This document shows positions 36,095 through 58,828 of a stretch of DNA of 64,000 nt, one piece after another. A program made the translations under genes and the position numbers. Position 1 is the first letter of the stretch. Each line of letters starts with the position of its first letter. This stretch comes from Bacteriovoracaceae bacterium (GTDB taxonomy: Bacteria > Bdellovibrionota > Bacteriovoracia > Bacteriovoracales > Bacteriovoracaceae): NCBI GenBank assembly GCA_016784965.1, contig JADHTQ010000006.1, positions 1 through 64,000 of the forward strand, read 5' to 3'. The notes beneath the pieces were generated by a model. It was given only the letters and a program-made list of their open reading frames with translations. It was not told the origin of the DNA and made no database searches.

Positions 36095-36850
36095 TTAATC
36101 AATAATATAGCCTTGGATTACTTTTACGTATTTCCACTTCTGCTTCTCTTCTAAAACTTCTACATCTGATCCATCTGGAACTACGATGATAAGCTTACCA
36201 TCAGTACTTGGATCTTCTCGCAATTTCAAACCACCATCAGCTGAAATTTTATCCGAGCGAACAAATTTTCCAAAAACCCATCCCTTTAAATCAGACTTAT
36301 CACTAGAGCTTTCAACTTTTGTCTTGCGCCACTTAAAAACTCTGACTTGGATTTCTTTCCAATTATCCTCGGTATCTAAAACTTCTACCTCTTCACCTTG
36401 TTGTACTATCATTATCATTTTTGCTGAGGTAGATGGCCCACTCCGCAGTTTTGCTCCCCCACTGGAGGAAATTTTATCATCATCTACCAGATCTCCATAA
36501 ACCCATCCTGAGACCAACATGCTGACAAACTCATTTTCGCCCTTAGTGACCGATATAGTGACATCCCCTTTAATAGTAGGAGACGATTTGACTATTTCAT
36601 TTTGCACTTTTTGGTCTTTAACTGGTGTTGGAGCAGGTTTGCTCCGGGGAGTTGGTTTGCTCCGGGGAGTTGGTTTGCTCCGGGGAGTTGGTTTGCTCTG
36701 GGGAGTTGGTTTGCTCTGGGGAGTTGGTTTGATTTTAGTTTTTTTTTGGTTTAAGTCCACACTTCCCCCACCAGCTGAGTCTTGAAAGGGCAAACTGGCG
36801 AGTGCAGTATTAAACAAAAAAAATGCTATCAAATAGTAGAAAATTCTCAT
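36095..36850 (-). CDS. Secreted protein with SH3-like domains and Pro-rich repeats, 251 aa
   Basis: A signal peptide (MRIFYYLIAFFLFNTALA) is followed by a Lys/Pro/Ser/Thr-rich linker made of six-residue repeats (TPQSKP, TPRSKP). Two SH3-like units follow, each containing a GGAKLRSGPS or GGLKLREDPS turn and ending with a 'VEVLDTEDNWKEIQV'-like strand. Bacterial SH3 domains commonly bind peptidoglycan peptides. No catalytic domain is present, so a cell-wall-binding or signalling role is likely. The linker and repeats suggest it extends through the periplasm. Confidence 0.8.
   Translation of the reverse strand: MRIFYYLIAFFLFNTALASLPFQDSAGGGSVDLNQKKTKIKPTPQSKPTPQSKPTPRSKPTPRSKPTPRSKPAPTPVKDQKVQNEIVKSSPTIKGDVTISVTKGENEFVSMLVSGWVYGDLVDDDKISSSGGAKLRSGPSTSAKMIMIVQQGEEVEVLDTEDNWKEIQVRVFKWRKTKVESSSDKSDLKGWVFGKFVRSDKISADGGLKLREDPSTDGKLIIVVPDGSDVEVLEEKQKWKYVKVIQGYIID
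36633..36731. repeat. 18-bp tandem repeat encoding a Pro-rich linker
   Basis: About five copies of an 18-base unit (CTCCGGGGAGTTGGTTTG and a CTCTGGGGAG variant) encode the SKPTPR/SKPTPQ hexapeptides of the SH3 protein. Copy number may vary between strains by slippage, in frame. Confidence 0.85.
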
Positions 36851-42294: not shown

Positions 42295-43116
42295 ATGAAA
42301 TTACTAATGTTCAATCTATTTTGTTTTGTTGCATTTGCAACTAGTAGTTTTGCAGATAACACCCAGGCAACCGCCACCAATCTTGGGACTCTAAATCCTG
42401 CTGCCAGACCGCTGGTTCTCTTTGAGCAAGTCAGTGGAAATGACATCAATGACTATTACAAATTTTCTACTACCAAGGCATTGCAAGTGCGCATCACAGT
42501 AGACAGATTAAATGACAATGCAAACCTAGGACTTTATGACACGCGCGGTCGTATGTTGGGCTCCTCTACAAAACAGGGAACCAACACTGATGTGGTAGCT
42601 AAAACTCTAAGTGCTGGAACCTATATTGTACGCGTTACCGCCGTCAAAGCTCCACCACGTGGACCATGGTCTAATGCCTCCTACCGCTTAACGGTATCTG
42701 GTACTGTCAGATTTAGTCTGCCAACCAGACCTACTCTACCAAATCCACCCCCAACAAATCCAACTCCAGCTCCAGGCAGAACGATCATTCGCGGGATACC
42801 ATATGTTGATCATTCAGCAAATACCTCCGTTACTCCTGGCTCAGTACGACTTGGCCAATTTTTTACAATTACGACAGGTTCATTTCCTTGGAATACCCCA
42901 GGAACTCTTAAGGTAGTCATCCAAGATGTCACTCGTGGAAATGGTTACGGAGTCACTGTCTTCCAACTAAGAAATGTTAGAAGGCAAGGAAATCGTTTGA
43001 CAGTACAGGCGCCACAGGCCGCTGTTTTTAAAAACCGCAAGTTTCACGTAACGGTTTTCCATTATCCTGGAACAAAAAATCATTATGCTAGTGCGGGAAC
43101 TATTTCCTTTAGGTAA
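42295..43116 (+). CDS. Secreted protein with a PPC-like domain, 273 aa
   Basis: A signal peptide (MKLLMFNLFCFVAFATSSFA) is followed by a bacterial pre-peptidase C-terminal (PPC) like domain: NDINDYYKFSTTKALQVR, NLGLYDTRGRML and LSAGTYIVRVTAV. A Pro/Thr-rich linker leads into a second beta-rich domain with no family I recognise. PPC domains usually sit beside secreted proteases; none is present here. An AAAGGAG site precedes the ATG. Probably secreted or surface bound. Confidence 0.75.
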   Translation: MKLLMFNLFCFVAFATSSFADNTQATATNLGTLNPAARPLVLFEQVSGNDINDYYKFSTTKALQVRITVDRLNDNANLGLYDTRGRMLGSSTKQGTNTDVVAKTLSAGTYIVRVTAVKAPPRGPWSNASYRLTVSGTVRFSLPTRPTLPNPPPTNPTPAPGRTIIRGIPYVDHSANTSVTPGSVRLGQFFTITTGSFPWNTPGTLKVVIQDVTRGNGYGVTVFQLRNVRRQGNRLTVQAPQAAVFKNRKFHVTVFHYPGTKNHYASAGTISFR

Positions 43117-43128
43117 AATAGACGTTTT

Positions 43129-43195
43129 AATGGCAATGGCAATGGCAACGGTTTTTCAGTTGCTGTTGTTGTTGCTGTTGCTGTTTCCGTTTGGG
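43129..43195. repeat. Hexanucleotide array 0, ending in GTTTGGG
   Basis: Three AATGGC units are followed by GTTGCT/GTTGTT units and GTTTCCGTTTGGG. It lies between the convergent PPC-like gene and the four-helix-bundle gene, and its ends can partly pair (GGCAACGG with GTTGCT units). Confidence 0.75.
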
Positions 43196-43206
43196 CAGCA
43201 CACCAG

Positions 43207-43530
43207 TTAAGCTTTTATTTGTGTAAGCTTAAGCTGAGGATAACATAGCTTATATAGACAAGCTCCGATATGATCTGCAAGATTAATCAACTCTATATCG
43301 ACCTCTATCAATTCCATTATGGCCTGACATTCCCGCAACGATCCTAAGCTAATTGAATAAAACCTCCTTTGATCTTTAGATGTTCTTTTCCCAGACCCCT
43401 CCGCCAAGTTCAAAACCACAGAACTACTTGCCCGATCCATTTGATCCTTCAAATGCCGAGGCAACTTCAATTTCTGCGCACCTTTATAAAACCTAATTGC
43501 CATCTGATAAGTCCTAAATTTCTTCAACAT
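43207..43530 (-). CDS. Four-helix-bundle protein (IVP/S23, Avd-like), 107 aa
   Basis: The product MLKKFRTYQMAIRFYKGAQK onward, with the motif LNLAEGSGKRTSKDQRRFY and later GSLRECQAI, belongs to the S23/TIGR02436 four-helix-bundle family. Such proteins are encoded inside 23S rRNA intervening sequences in many bacteria and are related to the Avd accessory proteins of diversity-generating retroelements. No 23S gene is present here. The start at 43530 is chosen because AAAGGAG precedes it by seven bases; the earlier frame start at 43584 lies inside the inverted repeat. The ribosome binding site is in that stem. The gene is surrounded by repeats, which suggests a small mobile unit. Confidence 0.85.
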   Translation of the reverse strand: MLKKFRTYQMAIRFYKGAQKLKLPRHLKDQMDRASSSVVLNLAEGSGKRTSKDQRRFYSISLGSLRECQAIMELIEVDIELINLADHIGACLYKLCYPQLKLTQIKA

Positions 43531-43537
43531 ACGAGCT

Positions 43538-43602
43538 CTCCTTTGTTGGTAATTAATGGGGATTCGTCTCACATGGGGCCCCATTAATTACCAACAAAGG
43601 AG
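43538..43602. repeat. Perfect 24-bp inverted repeat, covering a ribosome binding site
   Basis: Arm 43538-43561 is the exact reverse complement of 43579-43602, with a 17-base loop. The AAAGGAG site of the four-helix-bundle gene lies at the outer end of the arm nearest the gene, so in mRNA it would be paired. Confidence 0.9.
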
Positions 43603-43664
43603 GGCGATAATCTGGCCAATAAAAAATCACTCTTTCAGTCTCTACCCAAACTGAAAACAGCAAC
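43562..43664. repeat. Direct repeat unit A (about 100 bp)
   Basis: Starts ATTCGTCTCACAT, contains CCAACAAAGGAGGGCGATAA and TCTGGCCAATA, and ends CCCAAACTGAAAACAGCAAC. The same order of blocks occurs at 43774-43869 (unit B). Confidence 0.85.
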
Positions 43665-43744
43665 AGATTCAGATTCAGTATCAGTATCAGTATCAGTTGC
43701 AGTGTCCGTTGCTGTTGCTGTTGCTGTTGCAGTTTCCGTTTGGG
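43665..43744. repeat. Hexanucleotide array 1 (AGATTC, AGTATC, GTTGCT units)
   Basis: Runs of ATTCAG, ATCAGT and GTTGCT six-base units end in GTTTCCGTTTGGG. The CCCAAAC at the end of unit A and the terminal GTTTGGG can pair, so the array can fold back. Confidence 0.8.
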
Positions 43745-43773
43745 TACACCGGCAGCATAGTTTACAAATGGGA

Positions 43774-43869
43774 ATTCGTCTCACATAGAACCTCCAACAA
43801 AGAAGGGCGATACTCTGGCCAATATAAAAAATTCCTCTTTCAGTCTCTGCCCAAACTGAAAACAGCAAC
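43774..43869. repeat. Direct repeat unit B (about 96 bp)
   Basis: A second, diverged copy of unit A. It lacks the palindromic insert (AGAACCT replaces the GGGGCCCC and ATTAATTA blocks), contains CCAACAAAGAAGGGCGATAC and ends at the same CCCAAACTGAAAACAGCAAC boundary. Confidence 0.85.
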
Positions 43870-44011
43870 GGCAACAGCAACGGGAACAGTTTCAGATTCA
43901 GTTTCAGATTCAGTTTCAGATTCAGTTTCAGATTCAGATTCAGTTTCAGATTAAGTTTCAGATTCAGTTTCAGATTCAGTTTCAGATTCAGATTCAGATT
44001 CAATTTCCGTT
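43870..44011. repeat. Hexanucleotide array 2 (GGCAAC then TTCAGA/TTCAGT units)
   Basis: About twenty six-base units, mainly alternating TTTCAG and ATTCAG, run up to TTTCCGTTT close to the hydrolase gene start at 44058. Perfect or nearly perfect copies are expected to slip and vary in number. Confidence 0.85.
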
Positions 44012-44017
44012 TCTGAA

Positions 44018-44049
44018 GTCCTTGTTATACTATTGTAACTATCAAGGAC
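44018..44049 (+). promoter_or_regulatory. 7-bp inverted repeat pairing the hydrolase ribosome binding site
   Basis: GTCCTTG (44018-44024) can pair with CAAGGAC (44043-44049), which includes the AAGGAC ribosome binding site of the gene starting at 44058. An A+T-rich stretch with TATACT lies between the arms. Confidence 0.5.
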
Positions 44050-44057
44050 GTTCTAAT

Positions 44058-45260
44058 ATGATTTATTTAGTTGTGCTGATTATTGCTTTCACTGGCATCT
44101 TTGCTCTGTATTTTTTGTGGGCAGGATATAGACTTAAACAGTGGAAGGGTAAATATTCACCAATTAACTACGCTCAAAATTATGATGCAATCACCTCTAG
44201 TTATCAATTTTTAAGCTTTGCCTCCAAGGCCCCTTTTAATCCAGATGATCTGCAGTACGACAAACAAAACAATTTGTGGAAGTCTTCGATGCTTGAGTGT
44301 GCTGACAAAATGAAAGCAGGTGGCGTAACTGATGTTTTATTTGTTCATGGTACTTTTGTCGGTGATGATCCCTTTGATATTGTTCACCTGATCCATAGTG
44401 TGATTCCAGCTCTTGGAGATACTGCCTCCAACTATCTCAAGGCAGGAATTAAAAATAGTAACAATCTGTGGGCCAAAGACTTGGGAAATTTTACTAGCGA
44501 ATATCTTAGTCTTTTTAAAGAGGCAACTCAAAATTATTTTTTGGTCGACTCTTTTGATTGGTCAGGTGCTAACCATCATTTGGCAAGACTAAAAGCTTCT
44601 GTTGATCTTGTCAAAAAGATTTCATCTCTGATAAATAATAGCAGTGGCGCTCAGAAGAAATTTTTAATCATAGGACACAGTCATGCCGGTGCCCTATTTG
44701 CACTTCTAACTCAAGCTTTGTCATCTAAAAGATGTATGAATAATTTTATCAACGTTTTAAATAAGGCAGGACACGATATTTCTAAGTTGCGTGAAGATAT
44801 TGCTTTGATGTCCCATCATAAATACGATATTGTGACACTAGGTACTCCCCCACGCTACCCATTTGCCATTAGTCACCAGATTAGAATTCTCCACATGATC
44901 AATCATCGAGGTGAAAAACCAATTGGTGGATCTTTGTTGGGTGTTCTAAATACCCGCGATGGTGACTACATTCAACAGTGGGGCATTGCGGGCTCTGATA
45001 TTATTAGTGCTTTGGGAATTGATAGGCAACTTAATGGTGAGTTGGTCTCTTGTTTGGGAGAAGGGGCTGATCTGAATTTTTGGATGCAAAATATGAAACA
45101 TCAAAGAAGACTGCACGATCAGGGGCACCACTTGTTGATCGACTATAAGAACTCTTCTAGTATTCCAAATTGTCTTTTAACAATTTTTGGTCATGGAGTA
45201 TATACTAAGTACAATTCCATGCTCTTTAATACACAGCAAATTACCAATCACTTCTACTGA
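44058..45260 (+). CDS. Membrane-anchored alpha/beta-hydrolase-like protein, 400 aa
   Basis: The ATG at 44058 follows AAGGACG and begins a single membrane segment (MIYLVVLIIAFTGIFALYFL). The body contains VLFVHGTFVGDDP and the nucleophile-elbow-like LIIGHSHAGALFALL around residue 215, as in lipases and thioesterases of the alpha/beta-hydrolase fold. An Asp and the HDQGHHL stretch further on may complete a triad. The substrate is not known. The gene stands just behind the hexanucleotide array, so array length could influence its promoter. Confidence 0.65.
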   Translation: MIYLVVLIIAFTGIFALYFLWAGYRLKQWKGKYSPINYAQNYDAITSSYQFLSFASKAPFNPDDLQYDKQNNLWKSSMLECADKMKAGGVTDVLFVHGTFVGDDPFDIVHLIHSVIPALGDTASNYLKAGIKNSNNLWAKDLGNFTSEYLSLFKEATQNYFLVDSFDWSGANHHLARLKASVDLVKKISSLINNSSGAQKKFLIIGHSHAGALFALLTQALSSKRCMNNFINVLNKAGHDISKLREDIALMSHHKYDIVTLGTPPRYPFAISHQIRILHMINHRGEKPIGGSLLGVLNTRDGDYIQQWGIAGSDIISALGIDRQLNGELVSCLGEGADLNFWMQNMKHQRRLHDQGHHLLIDYKNSSSIPNCLLTIFGHGVYTKYNSMLFNTQQITNHFY

Positions 45261-57105: not shown

Positions 57106-57157
57106 ACTGCAACAGAAACGGGAACAGGAATGTTGCCGTTTCCGTTTCTGTTGCAGT
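57106..57157 (-). terminator. 16-bp perfect hairpin of the hexanucleotide family, likely AmrS terminator
   Basis: ACTGCAACAGAAACGG (57106-57121) is the exact reverse complement of 57142-57157, with a 20-base loop. On the minus strand a GTGTTTTTTGG stretch follows, so it resembles an intrinsic terminator just behind the AmrS stop. The units GTTGCC, GTTTCC and GTTTCT belong to the same family as the arrays at 43-44 kb. Confidence 0.6.
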
Positions 57158-58790: not shown

Positions 58791-58828
58791 ATCGGCGCCT
58801 AAAAAAGTCCATTTTTTTAGGCGCCGAT
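58791..58828. terminator. Strong bidirectional hairpin terminator after fliN
   Basis: ATCGGCGCCTAAAAAA (58791-58806) pairs with the reverse complement at 58813-58828. The A-rich and T-rich flanks of the G+C-rich stem make it work for either strand. It lies between the convergent fliN and epimerase genes. Confidence 0.8.

What the first reader, a model, noticed from the sequence alone, without database searches (positions are those of the whole stretch)
43538..43602. Ribosome binding site buried in a perfect 24-bp stem
The AAAGGAG of the four-helix-bundle gene lies in a 24-bp perfect stem with a 17-base loop. Unless transcription starts inside the stem, translation would be strongly limited. 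Such a stem may be a protein or ribosome sensor, or the end of a small mobile unit.
Basis: partly seen in the sequence, partly recalled or inferred. Interest (0 to 1): 0.55.

Follow-up and report, generated by a model that had tools for sequence, protein, structure and literature searches.

The report
Palindromic leader locking a ribosome-binding site
A small repeat-bordered gene unit begins with a perfect hairpin that is predicted to hide its own ribosome-binding site, and the same design, with unrelated stem sequences, recurs before many genes of this family in the sampled relatives, often as a mirror-image leader shared by two divergent gene copies.

Summary
Confirmed. Window 43538-43602 holds a 24-bp perfect stem with a 17-nt loop, the longest perfect close inverted repeat in the window. 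It ends 7 nt before the ATG (43530, - strand) of a PF05635/TIGR02436 "23S rRNA-IVP" four-helix-bundle gene; the Shine-Dalgarno (SD) lies in the 3' arm, each base predicted at most 1.4% unpaired. It recurs: all six IVP copies with an intact 5' end in the genome carry it, with compensatory stem changes. Of 172 IVP starts measured (at least 11 from other phyla than the window's) 101 have a comparable stem, controls 1 of 113; in head-to-head IVP pairs 73 of 80, the palindrome then being their shared leader, usually with one SD per arm. The window gene looks like a single descendant of that arrangement, inside a dispersed unit bordered by hexamer arrays. Two paralogous units are bounded by inverted arrays and carry a Y1 transposase. 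Best reading: an SD-locking leader against read-through translation, as in IS10/IS200, whose arms are kept identical at least partly by DNA template switching (loop flips, no wobble excess), so the covariation does not prove RNA function. Locking is predicted, not shown. I found no description in the literature searched.

The parts
43538..43561 (-). 3' arm of the stem on the gene's mRNA; holds the SD AAAGGAG (43538-43544)
43562..43578 (-). 17-nt loop (CCCCATGTGAGACGAAT); the CCCC at its start and the GAAT at its end are invariant in the 8 genome copies aligned
43579..43602 (-). 5' arm of the stem; on the other strand it reads as a mirror SD with no IVP gene behind it here
43207..43530 (-). IVP (23S rRNA intervening-sequence-protein-like four-helix-bundle) gene with stop codon, 107 aa
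   Evidence: PF05635 60.3 bits; TIGR02436 60.4 bits; start from SD and paralogue alignment
43603..43644 (-). unit-specific leader between array and stem, similar in other copies of the genome
43645..43651 (+). CCCAAAC, proposed unit border on the stem side, inverted relative to 43189-43196
   Evidence: read from the sequence
43189..43196 (+). GTTTGGGC, proposed unit border beyond the gene's 3' end
   Evidence: read from the sequence
43129..43188 (+). hexamer array beyond the gene (AATGGC x3.3, GTTGCT x4.5)
43652..43737 (+). mixed hexamer array upstream of the leader (TCAGTA, CAGTTG and GTTGCT types; called by TRF at 43675-43734)
43738..43860 (-). second, decayed copy of the unit: remnants of leader, stem and loop without gene or full palindrome
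   Evidence: 81% identical match at 43767-43865; repeats D5, D6
43861..44015 (+). outer hexamer array (CAGATT x19.3 core at 43887-44002)

Best explanation
The stem is the 5' leader of a small, dispersed, array-bordered unit that carries an IVP gene. It descends from, or is built like, the palindrome that separates head-to-head IVP gene pairs in Bdellovibrionota, where as a rule each arm holds the SD of one gene. In any transcript that enters the unit from outside, the two arms pair and lock the SD, so the protein is made poorly unless the helix is opened or cut, or the RNA starts at or after the loop. That is the read-through guard known (recalled) for transposase genes of IS10/IS200 type. The arms are kept identical at least partly by DNA template switching between them. 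Shown by computation: the stem, its recurrence, the pair architecture, the arrays, the loop flips. Inferred: that the locked state is what matters to the cell or element, the descent from a pair, and that the unit moves.
For: All 6 IVP copies of the genome with an intact 5' end have the stem directly before the ATG with the SD inside; a truncated and a decayed copy have it too. Stem sequences differ between copies with pairing kept: 94.4% of 161 cells paired, 9 of 27 pairs with changes on both sides (shuffle mean 3.1; partner slid by 1-3 columns, 0-3). Of 172 distinct IVP starts 101 have a stem of score 14 or more within 130 nt against 1 of 113 control ORFs of the same loci; without the 11 starts known to be from other phyla it is 100 of 161. 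In 79 of the 101 the SD overlaps the 3' arm. P(SD unpaired) is under 0.1 in 63 of 71 paired and 17 of 23 unpaired genes with a stem, against 15 of 113 controls and 5 of 30 IVP genes without a stem. 73 of 80 starts in head-to-head pairs have the stem, 20 of 81 singles. Arms are on average 94% complementary while the partner genes are 72% identical in DNA and 56% in protein (34 pairs). No sigma-70-like site upstream on the gene's strand in 43100-44100, and none in excess before IVP genes. Unit features: dispersed copies; two units (C48, C51) bounded by inverted 13-15-mer arrays and carrying a Y1_Tnp gene next to IVP.
Against: Perfect pairing and covariation can arise without selection on RNA: loop orientation is flipped in 3 of 11 comparisons of related pairs (at least 2 events, one with certain gene orientation), and 20 single stems show no wobble excess (G-U 7, A-C 16). 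19 of the 98 stems with an SD of 4 nt or more have less than 3 nt of it in the arm. 61 of 81 single IVP genes with 450 nt upstream held have no such stem, and 6 of the 20 that do are this genome's own. Of 29 starts from Acidobacteriota loci 1 has a stem, and of 10 Opitutales-type starts none, so the gene family does not need it. No transcript, start site or protein level is known. Mobility is inferred; no empty site or target duplication was looked at, and by the flank test the window's own borders score higher as direct than as inverted repeats (33 against 17; inverted similarity is under the threshold in all 21 single-stem units).
Confidence: 0.5

Rival explanations
1. The palindrome is a DNA-level product: an inverted duplication of the IVP gene with its leader, with arms repeatedly homogenised by template switching; the SD lies in it only because each gene needs an SD at that place. 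The single genes kept it after losing the partner.
For: Tied to head-to-head pairs; loop flips; no wobble excess in single stems. Published parallels: PMC8794818 (passages read) and PMC8604942 (start of abstract seen) describe arm homogenisation and loop or spacer inversion by template switching.
Against: Single copies in this genome keep the mirror SD arm through at least four different stem sequences although no gene needs it; many centres look TCAC-N4/5-GTGA-like in distant loci (by eye, not scored); SDs are locked far more often than in controls.
Confidence: 0.3
2. Transcription starts in the loop or 3' arm, so native mRNA never carries the hairpin; the palindrome works as a divergent promoter/operator in DNA, with the TCAC..GTGA-like centre as a protein site.
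For: Palindromic centre recurs (by eye); folding frees the SD fully for a 5' end at 43545 and partly for the others tried inside the stem.
Against: No sigma-70-like promoter in excess in these leaders; pair-stem and single-stem leaders match on average worse than their shuffles. Other promoter types were not covered.
Confidence: 0.15
3. The IVP protein (a homopentamer in the solved Xanthomonas relative) binds the hairpin of its own mRNA and controls its translation.
For: Recurrent centre and gene linkage; other family members lie in rRNA intervening sequences (PMC4990558, passages).
Against: Stem body differs widely; most IVP starts of the other phyla sampled lack the hairpin; no binding data.
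Confidence: 0.1
4. The stem is an RNase III processing site, as in rRNA IVSs.
For: Helices of up to 52 positions; the Coxiella IVS stem enclosing an S23p gene is cut by RNase III (PMC4990558, passages).
Against: Here the stem lies before the gene and contains the SD; cutting would trim or remove the SD arm. Not tested.
Confidence: 0.1

Closest known systems
Insertion-sequence leaders that hide the transposase SD (IS10, IS50, IS200; ISPpu9 5'-UTR)
   Same: A leader helix is predicted to limit translation of a dispersed unit's gene; the paralogous units C48, C51 and C94 even have a Y1 (IS200-like, PF01797) transposase gene
   Different: Here the locked gene is IVP, the helix is a near-perfect palindrome often shared by two divergent genes, and its sequence changes freely. 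IS10/IS50/IS200 leader folding is recalled; PMC8450116 passages mention sRNA or Hfq control of IS10, IS30, IS200 and list a paper titled for IS200 mRNA secondary structure, which was not held
23S rRNA intervening sequences with S23p/IVP gene (Coxiella, Leptospira)
   Same: Same kind of protein; long complementary repeats and, in Coxiella, GACAGAT heptamer repeats before the gene start (PMC4990558, passages)
   Different: Not in an rRNA gene; in the Coxiella IVS the gene lies in the loop of the stem, here the stem lies before the gene and contains the SD
REP/RAYT systems
   Same: Palindromes with a Y1 transposase gene nearby in 3 copies of this genome
   Different: The transposase tested scores far under the RAYT equivalog cut-off (30.8 against 80 bits); the window unit has no transposase; REP motifs were not tested
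Cyanobacterial STRR heptanucleotide repeats (recalled)
   Same: Short tandem arrays of variable unit
   Different: Here the arrays sit at the borders of IVP units; a link to STRR was not tested

Membership tests
PF05635 / TIGR02436 IVP four-helix-bundle protein | profile score over the curated cut-off | tested here: met
   60.3 bits against 33.8; 60.4 against 24
23S rRNA intervening sequence (IVS) | inserted in a 23S rRNA gene | tested here: not met
   No Rfam family match at gathering score in the window; flanking ORFs are protein genes
23S rRNA intervening sequence (IVS) | complementary ends that enclose the gene | tested here: inconclusive
   7-8-bp inverted borders only in the window, where direct similarity scored higher (33 against 17); clear inverted arrays in C48 and, by eye, C51
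IS10/IS50/IS200-type SD-sequestering leader | SD paired inside a leader stem in read-through RNA | tested here: met
   by prediction only: P(unpaired) at most 0.014 per base
IS10/IS50/IS200-type SD-sequestering leader | own promoter inside the unit giving an mRNA without the 5' arm | tested here: inconclusive
   no sigma-70-like site upstream on the gene's strand in 43100-44100; other promoter types not covered
IS10/IS50/IS200-type SD-sequestering leader | controlled gene is a transposase | tested here: not met
   the gene behind the stem is IVP; Y1_Tnp lies behind IVP in 3 other copies
REP-associated tyrosine transposase unit | transposase over the RAYT equivalog cut-off | tested here: not met
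   C48 copy: NF047646 30.8 bits against cut-off 80; the C51 and C94 copies were not scanned with this library
Transposable element | empty site or target duplication | not tested
   homologues of one neighbouring protein in relatives only 30-44% identical; sites not compared

The most novel reading that the evidence does not exclude
Free-standing IVP genes belong to a widespread kind of small mobile element whose borders are short tandem arrays, often inverted, of freely changing unit (often hexamers in Bdellovibrionota, mostly 7-9-mers in the Acidobacteriota loci). The 23S rRNA IVS would be its rRNA-inserted form, and the Bdellovibrionota form would add a mirror-image, SD-locking palindrome shared by two divergent IVP genes, acting as a two-way switch in RNA and as a hairpin substrate in DNA.
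Probability: 0.25. Interest if true: 0.8.

Novelty: new variant of a known kind. Interest (0 to 1): 0.6.

Why it matters
IVP/S23 proteins are common and have a solved relative but no known function (so stated in PMC4990558, passages). A leader predicted to lock their translation, a palindrome shared by mirror-image gene pairs, and array borders seen in loci of three phyla give concrete handles on whether these genes are mobile elements and how they are kept quiet. It is also a natural case in which compensatory covariation coexists with a template-switch signature, a warning for RNA-structure inference from covariation alone.

Tried and rejected
Known RNA family: 0 Rfam matches at gathering score in the window. 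Transcription terminator: no T run follows the stem on either strand (read); the one terminator-like site found in 43100-44100 lies in the decayed copy at 43806-43791. General link to a Y1 transposase: my profile found it beside IVP only in this genome (C48, C51, C94) and nowhere else in loci L018-L219, many of which hold only 1-2 kb; the related Y1 gene at C9:96251 has no IVP and no border array in the stretch held. Conservation of the stem sequence: the covariance model finds it only in the own genome among 39 genomes, although it gave 15 matches up to E = 1 in the 79 genome-contig loci. G-U against A-C in paired genes (62 against 20) was discarded because my scoring favours G-U on the strand read. 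The first four rows of the flank table are an indexing artefact and were removed; of the direct matches of pairs, L040 and L036 lie 49-126 nt from the unit edges and may have another cause. The 5' end 43540 tried lacks the full SD and is not used. The structure of the IVP protein was not predicted; the PDB sequence search gave one match up to E 0.01, 2gsc.

Literature: nine of the ten searches gave, in what their listings showed, no description of palindromic leaders or array borders of free-standing IVP genes; one search was about template switching. The listings are capped and the library holds only open-licence papers, so this is weak evidence of absence.

The statement now rests on the 29 Acidobacteriota starts.

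Full report
Observation. The stem is real and is the longest perfect inverted repeat with a loop of at most 40 in the window: 24 bp with a 17-nt loop at 43538-43602, next longest 16 bp; five first-order Markov resamplings of the window gave 10-12 bp at most. The 141-nt leader folds at -48.6 kcal/mol, z -4.87 against 200 shuffles. On the - strand the SD AAAGGAG (43544-43538) lies in the 3' arm, 7 nt before the ATG at 43530 of an IVP gene (PF05635; TIGR02436). If the whole stem is transcribed, each SD base is at most 1.4% unpaired; a 5' end at 43545 frees it, and the six 5' ends tried between 43550 and 43590 give mixed values.

The genome. The genome gave 7 PF05635 matches, 6 over the cut-off. 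The 6 have an intact 5' end and the stem in the same place; a truncated gene (C78) and a decayed one (C102) also keep it, and the seventh match (C94) has lost its 5' end. The 8 aligned stems fall into at least four sequence types. Across 6 distinct rows 94.4% of 161 cells pair and 9 of 27 pairs have changes on both sides, more than in 499 of 500 shuffles and in every slid version. Among 39 genomes searched with the covariance model only the own one has a match, although the model finds similar stems in some genome-contig loci.

The relatives. A genome scan with the six paralogues gave 79 loci (the best 80 of 173 kept), mostly titled as Bdellovibrionota groups; PF05635 matches occur in 84 of 290 genomes sampled from the window's phylum. 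The window's genome shares a family with G164, one of whose contigs has the length of JABGUH010000005.1, a Bdellovibrionales MAG, so I take the window to be Bdellovibrionota (order and phylum). From the loci I measured 172 distinct IVP starts; frames without a usable start, with under 60 nt upstream, or identical to another were dropped from 270. Eleven of the 172 are from other phyla by their record titles. 101 of 172 have a stem of score 14 or more within 130 nt, against 1 of 113 control ORFs with an SD of 5 nt or more in the same loci; without the eleven it is 100 of 161. The starts are not independent: of 27 named assemblies behind L031-L082, 19 have such a stem and 14 have it with the whole SD inside the arm. 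Between distant loci I saw no shared stem sequence beyond the SD, apart from a centre that often looks like TCAC-N4/5-GTGA (by eye).

Head-to-head pairs. 73 of 80 starts that belong to a head-to-head IVP pair have the stem, 20 of 81 singles do (6 of the 20 are this genome's), and 8 of 11 with too little upstream DNA. In pairs the palindrome fills much of the short intergenic region, as a rule with one gene's SD in each arm. In 34 pairs with both genes measured the arms are on average 94% complementary while the genes are 72% identical in DNA and 56% in protein, so the palindrome outlasts the divergence of the genes. P(SD unpaired) is under 0.1 in 63 of 71 paired genes and 17 of 23 others with a stem, 5 of 30 IVP genes without a stem and 15 of 113 controls (124 of the 172 starts had an SD of 4 nt or more and enough leader). 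In 79 of the 101 stems the SD overlaps the arm by 3 nt or more; 3 have no SD of 4 nt and 19 have it outside or nearly so.

How the stem stays perfect. Two results caution against reading the covariation as RNA selection. Twenty single stems show no G-U excess (7 G-U, 16 A-C). Loop orientation is flipped in 3 of the 11 comparisons of related pairs that passed the similarity filter, at least two events: L054/L050 with certain gene orientation, L033 against L036 and L040 with weak orientation. Arm homogenisation and loop inversion are marks of template switching (PMC8794818, passages read; PMC8604942, start of abstract). Against pure drift, single copies in this genome keep a mirror SD arm that no gene uses, through several stem sequences.

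The unit. Tandem arrays pile up at the borders of IVP units. For singles, coverage is 0.111 in the 150 nt upstream, 0.049 in the next 150, 0.082 just after the gene and 0.008-0.023 further off. For pairs, arrays lie at the two outer borders (0.050 and 0.069), with 0.007-0.021 inside and 0.003-0.010 outside (each pair is counted from both genes). Left and right flanks of one unit resemble each other: in stemless singles 8 of 59 as inverted and 3 of 59 as direct repeats, in pairs 3 of 35 inverted and 6 of 35 direct, in single-stem units 0 of 21 inverted and 2 of 21 direct; shuffled controls 5 of 685 inverted and 0 of 685 direct. In this genome C48 is bounded by a 13-mer array and its inverted counterpart, enclosing stem, IVP and a Y1_Tnp gene; C51 has the same plan with 14/15-mers, judged by eye from the consensus units. 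The window unit lies between GTTTGGGC (43189) and CCCAAAC (43645) with hexamer arrays outside and a second, decayed unit at 43738-43860; its flanks score higher as direct than inverted repeats (33 against 17). Short remnants of the upstream part occur at C41, C44, C76 and C49. Mobility is therefore likely but not shown.

Other phyla. Of 29 starts from Acidobacteriota loci (L269-L298 and the Vicinamibacteria genome G292) 1 has a stem of score 14 or more, and one more start of the same kind, L107, was in the first set (class and phylum). None of the 10 Opitutales-type starts has one. Arrays of mainly 7-9-mers nevertheless border the gene in L269-L298: 22 of 30 loci upstream, 27 of 29 just after it, several plainly inverted by their consensus units. 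The Opitutales-type loci show 7 of 10 upstream and 8 of 10 downstream. So array borders are the wider trait and the SD palindrome is, in this sample, essentially the Bdellovibrionota trait.

Mechanism. I favour an SD-locking leader that keeps the unit's protein from being made from read-through RNA (0.5). This works like IS10/IS200 leaders (recalled) but is not a member: the gene is not a transposase and no inner promoter was found. The main rival is a DNA-level palindrome kept by template switching, with SD burial as a by-product (0.3). Others are a start inside the palindrome, autoregulation by IVP, and RNase III processing. PMC4990558 (passages) describes the related rRNA IVS of Coxiella with the gene inside an RNase III-cut stem and heptamer repeats before its start.

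Verdict. Observation confirmed, interpretation partly supported, extended to a recurrent architecture for which the searches made here found no description; function unproven.

Noticed in passing
L269-L298 (IVP match near 1501): In the Acidobacteriota loci mainly 7-9-mer tandem arrays border IVP genes: 22 of 30 upstream, 27 of 29 just after the gene, several inverted by their consensus units (L283, L286, L275, L277).
   Followed up: partly
L022:140-1784 and L020:712-2111: Units with inverted 13-15-mer arrays that enclose stem, IVP and a Y1_Tnp gene.
   Followed up: partly
window 43738-43860: A decayed second copy of the unit without gene or full palindrome.
   Followed up: partly
L026, L028, L029, L030: Short remnants: hexamer array plus the upstream leader of the unit without an IVP gene.
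   Followed up: no
L025 (C81): A deleted copy in which one stem arm is fused to the IVP coding region.
   Followed up: no
window 36636-36731: 18-bp tandem repeat GGTTTGCTCCGGGGAGTT, 5.3 copies.
   Followed up: no
window 57106-57157 and 58791-58828: Two further perfect 16-bp stems with 20- and 6-nt loops.
   Followed up: no
L110-L121: Higher-scoring, nearly full-length IVP matches in other genomes of the phylum, mostly without a stem (1 of the 11 measured has one); whether they lie in rRNA genes was not checked.
   Followed up: no
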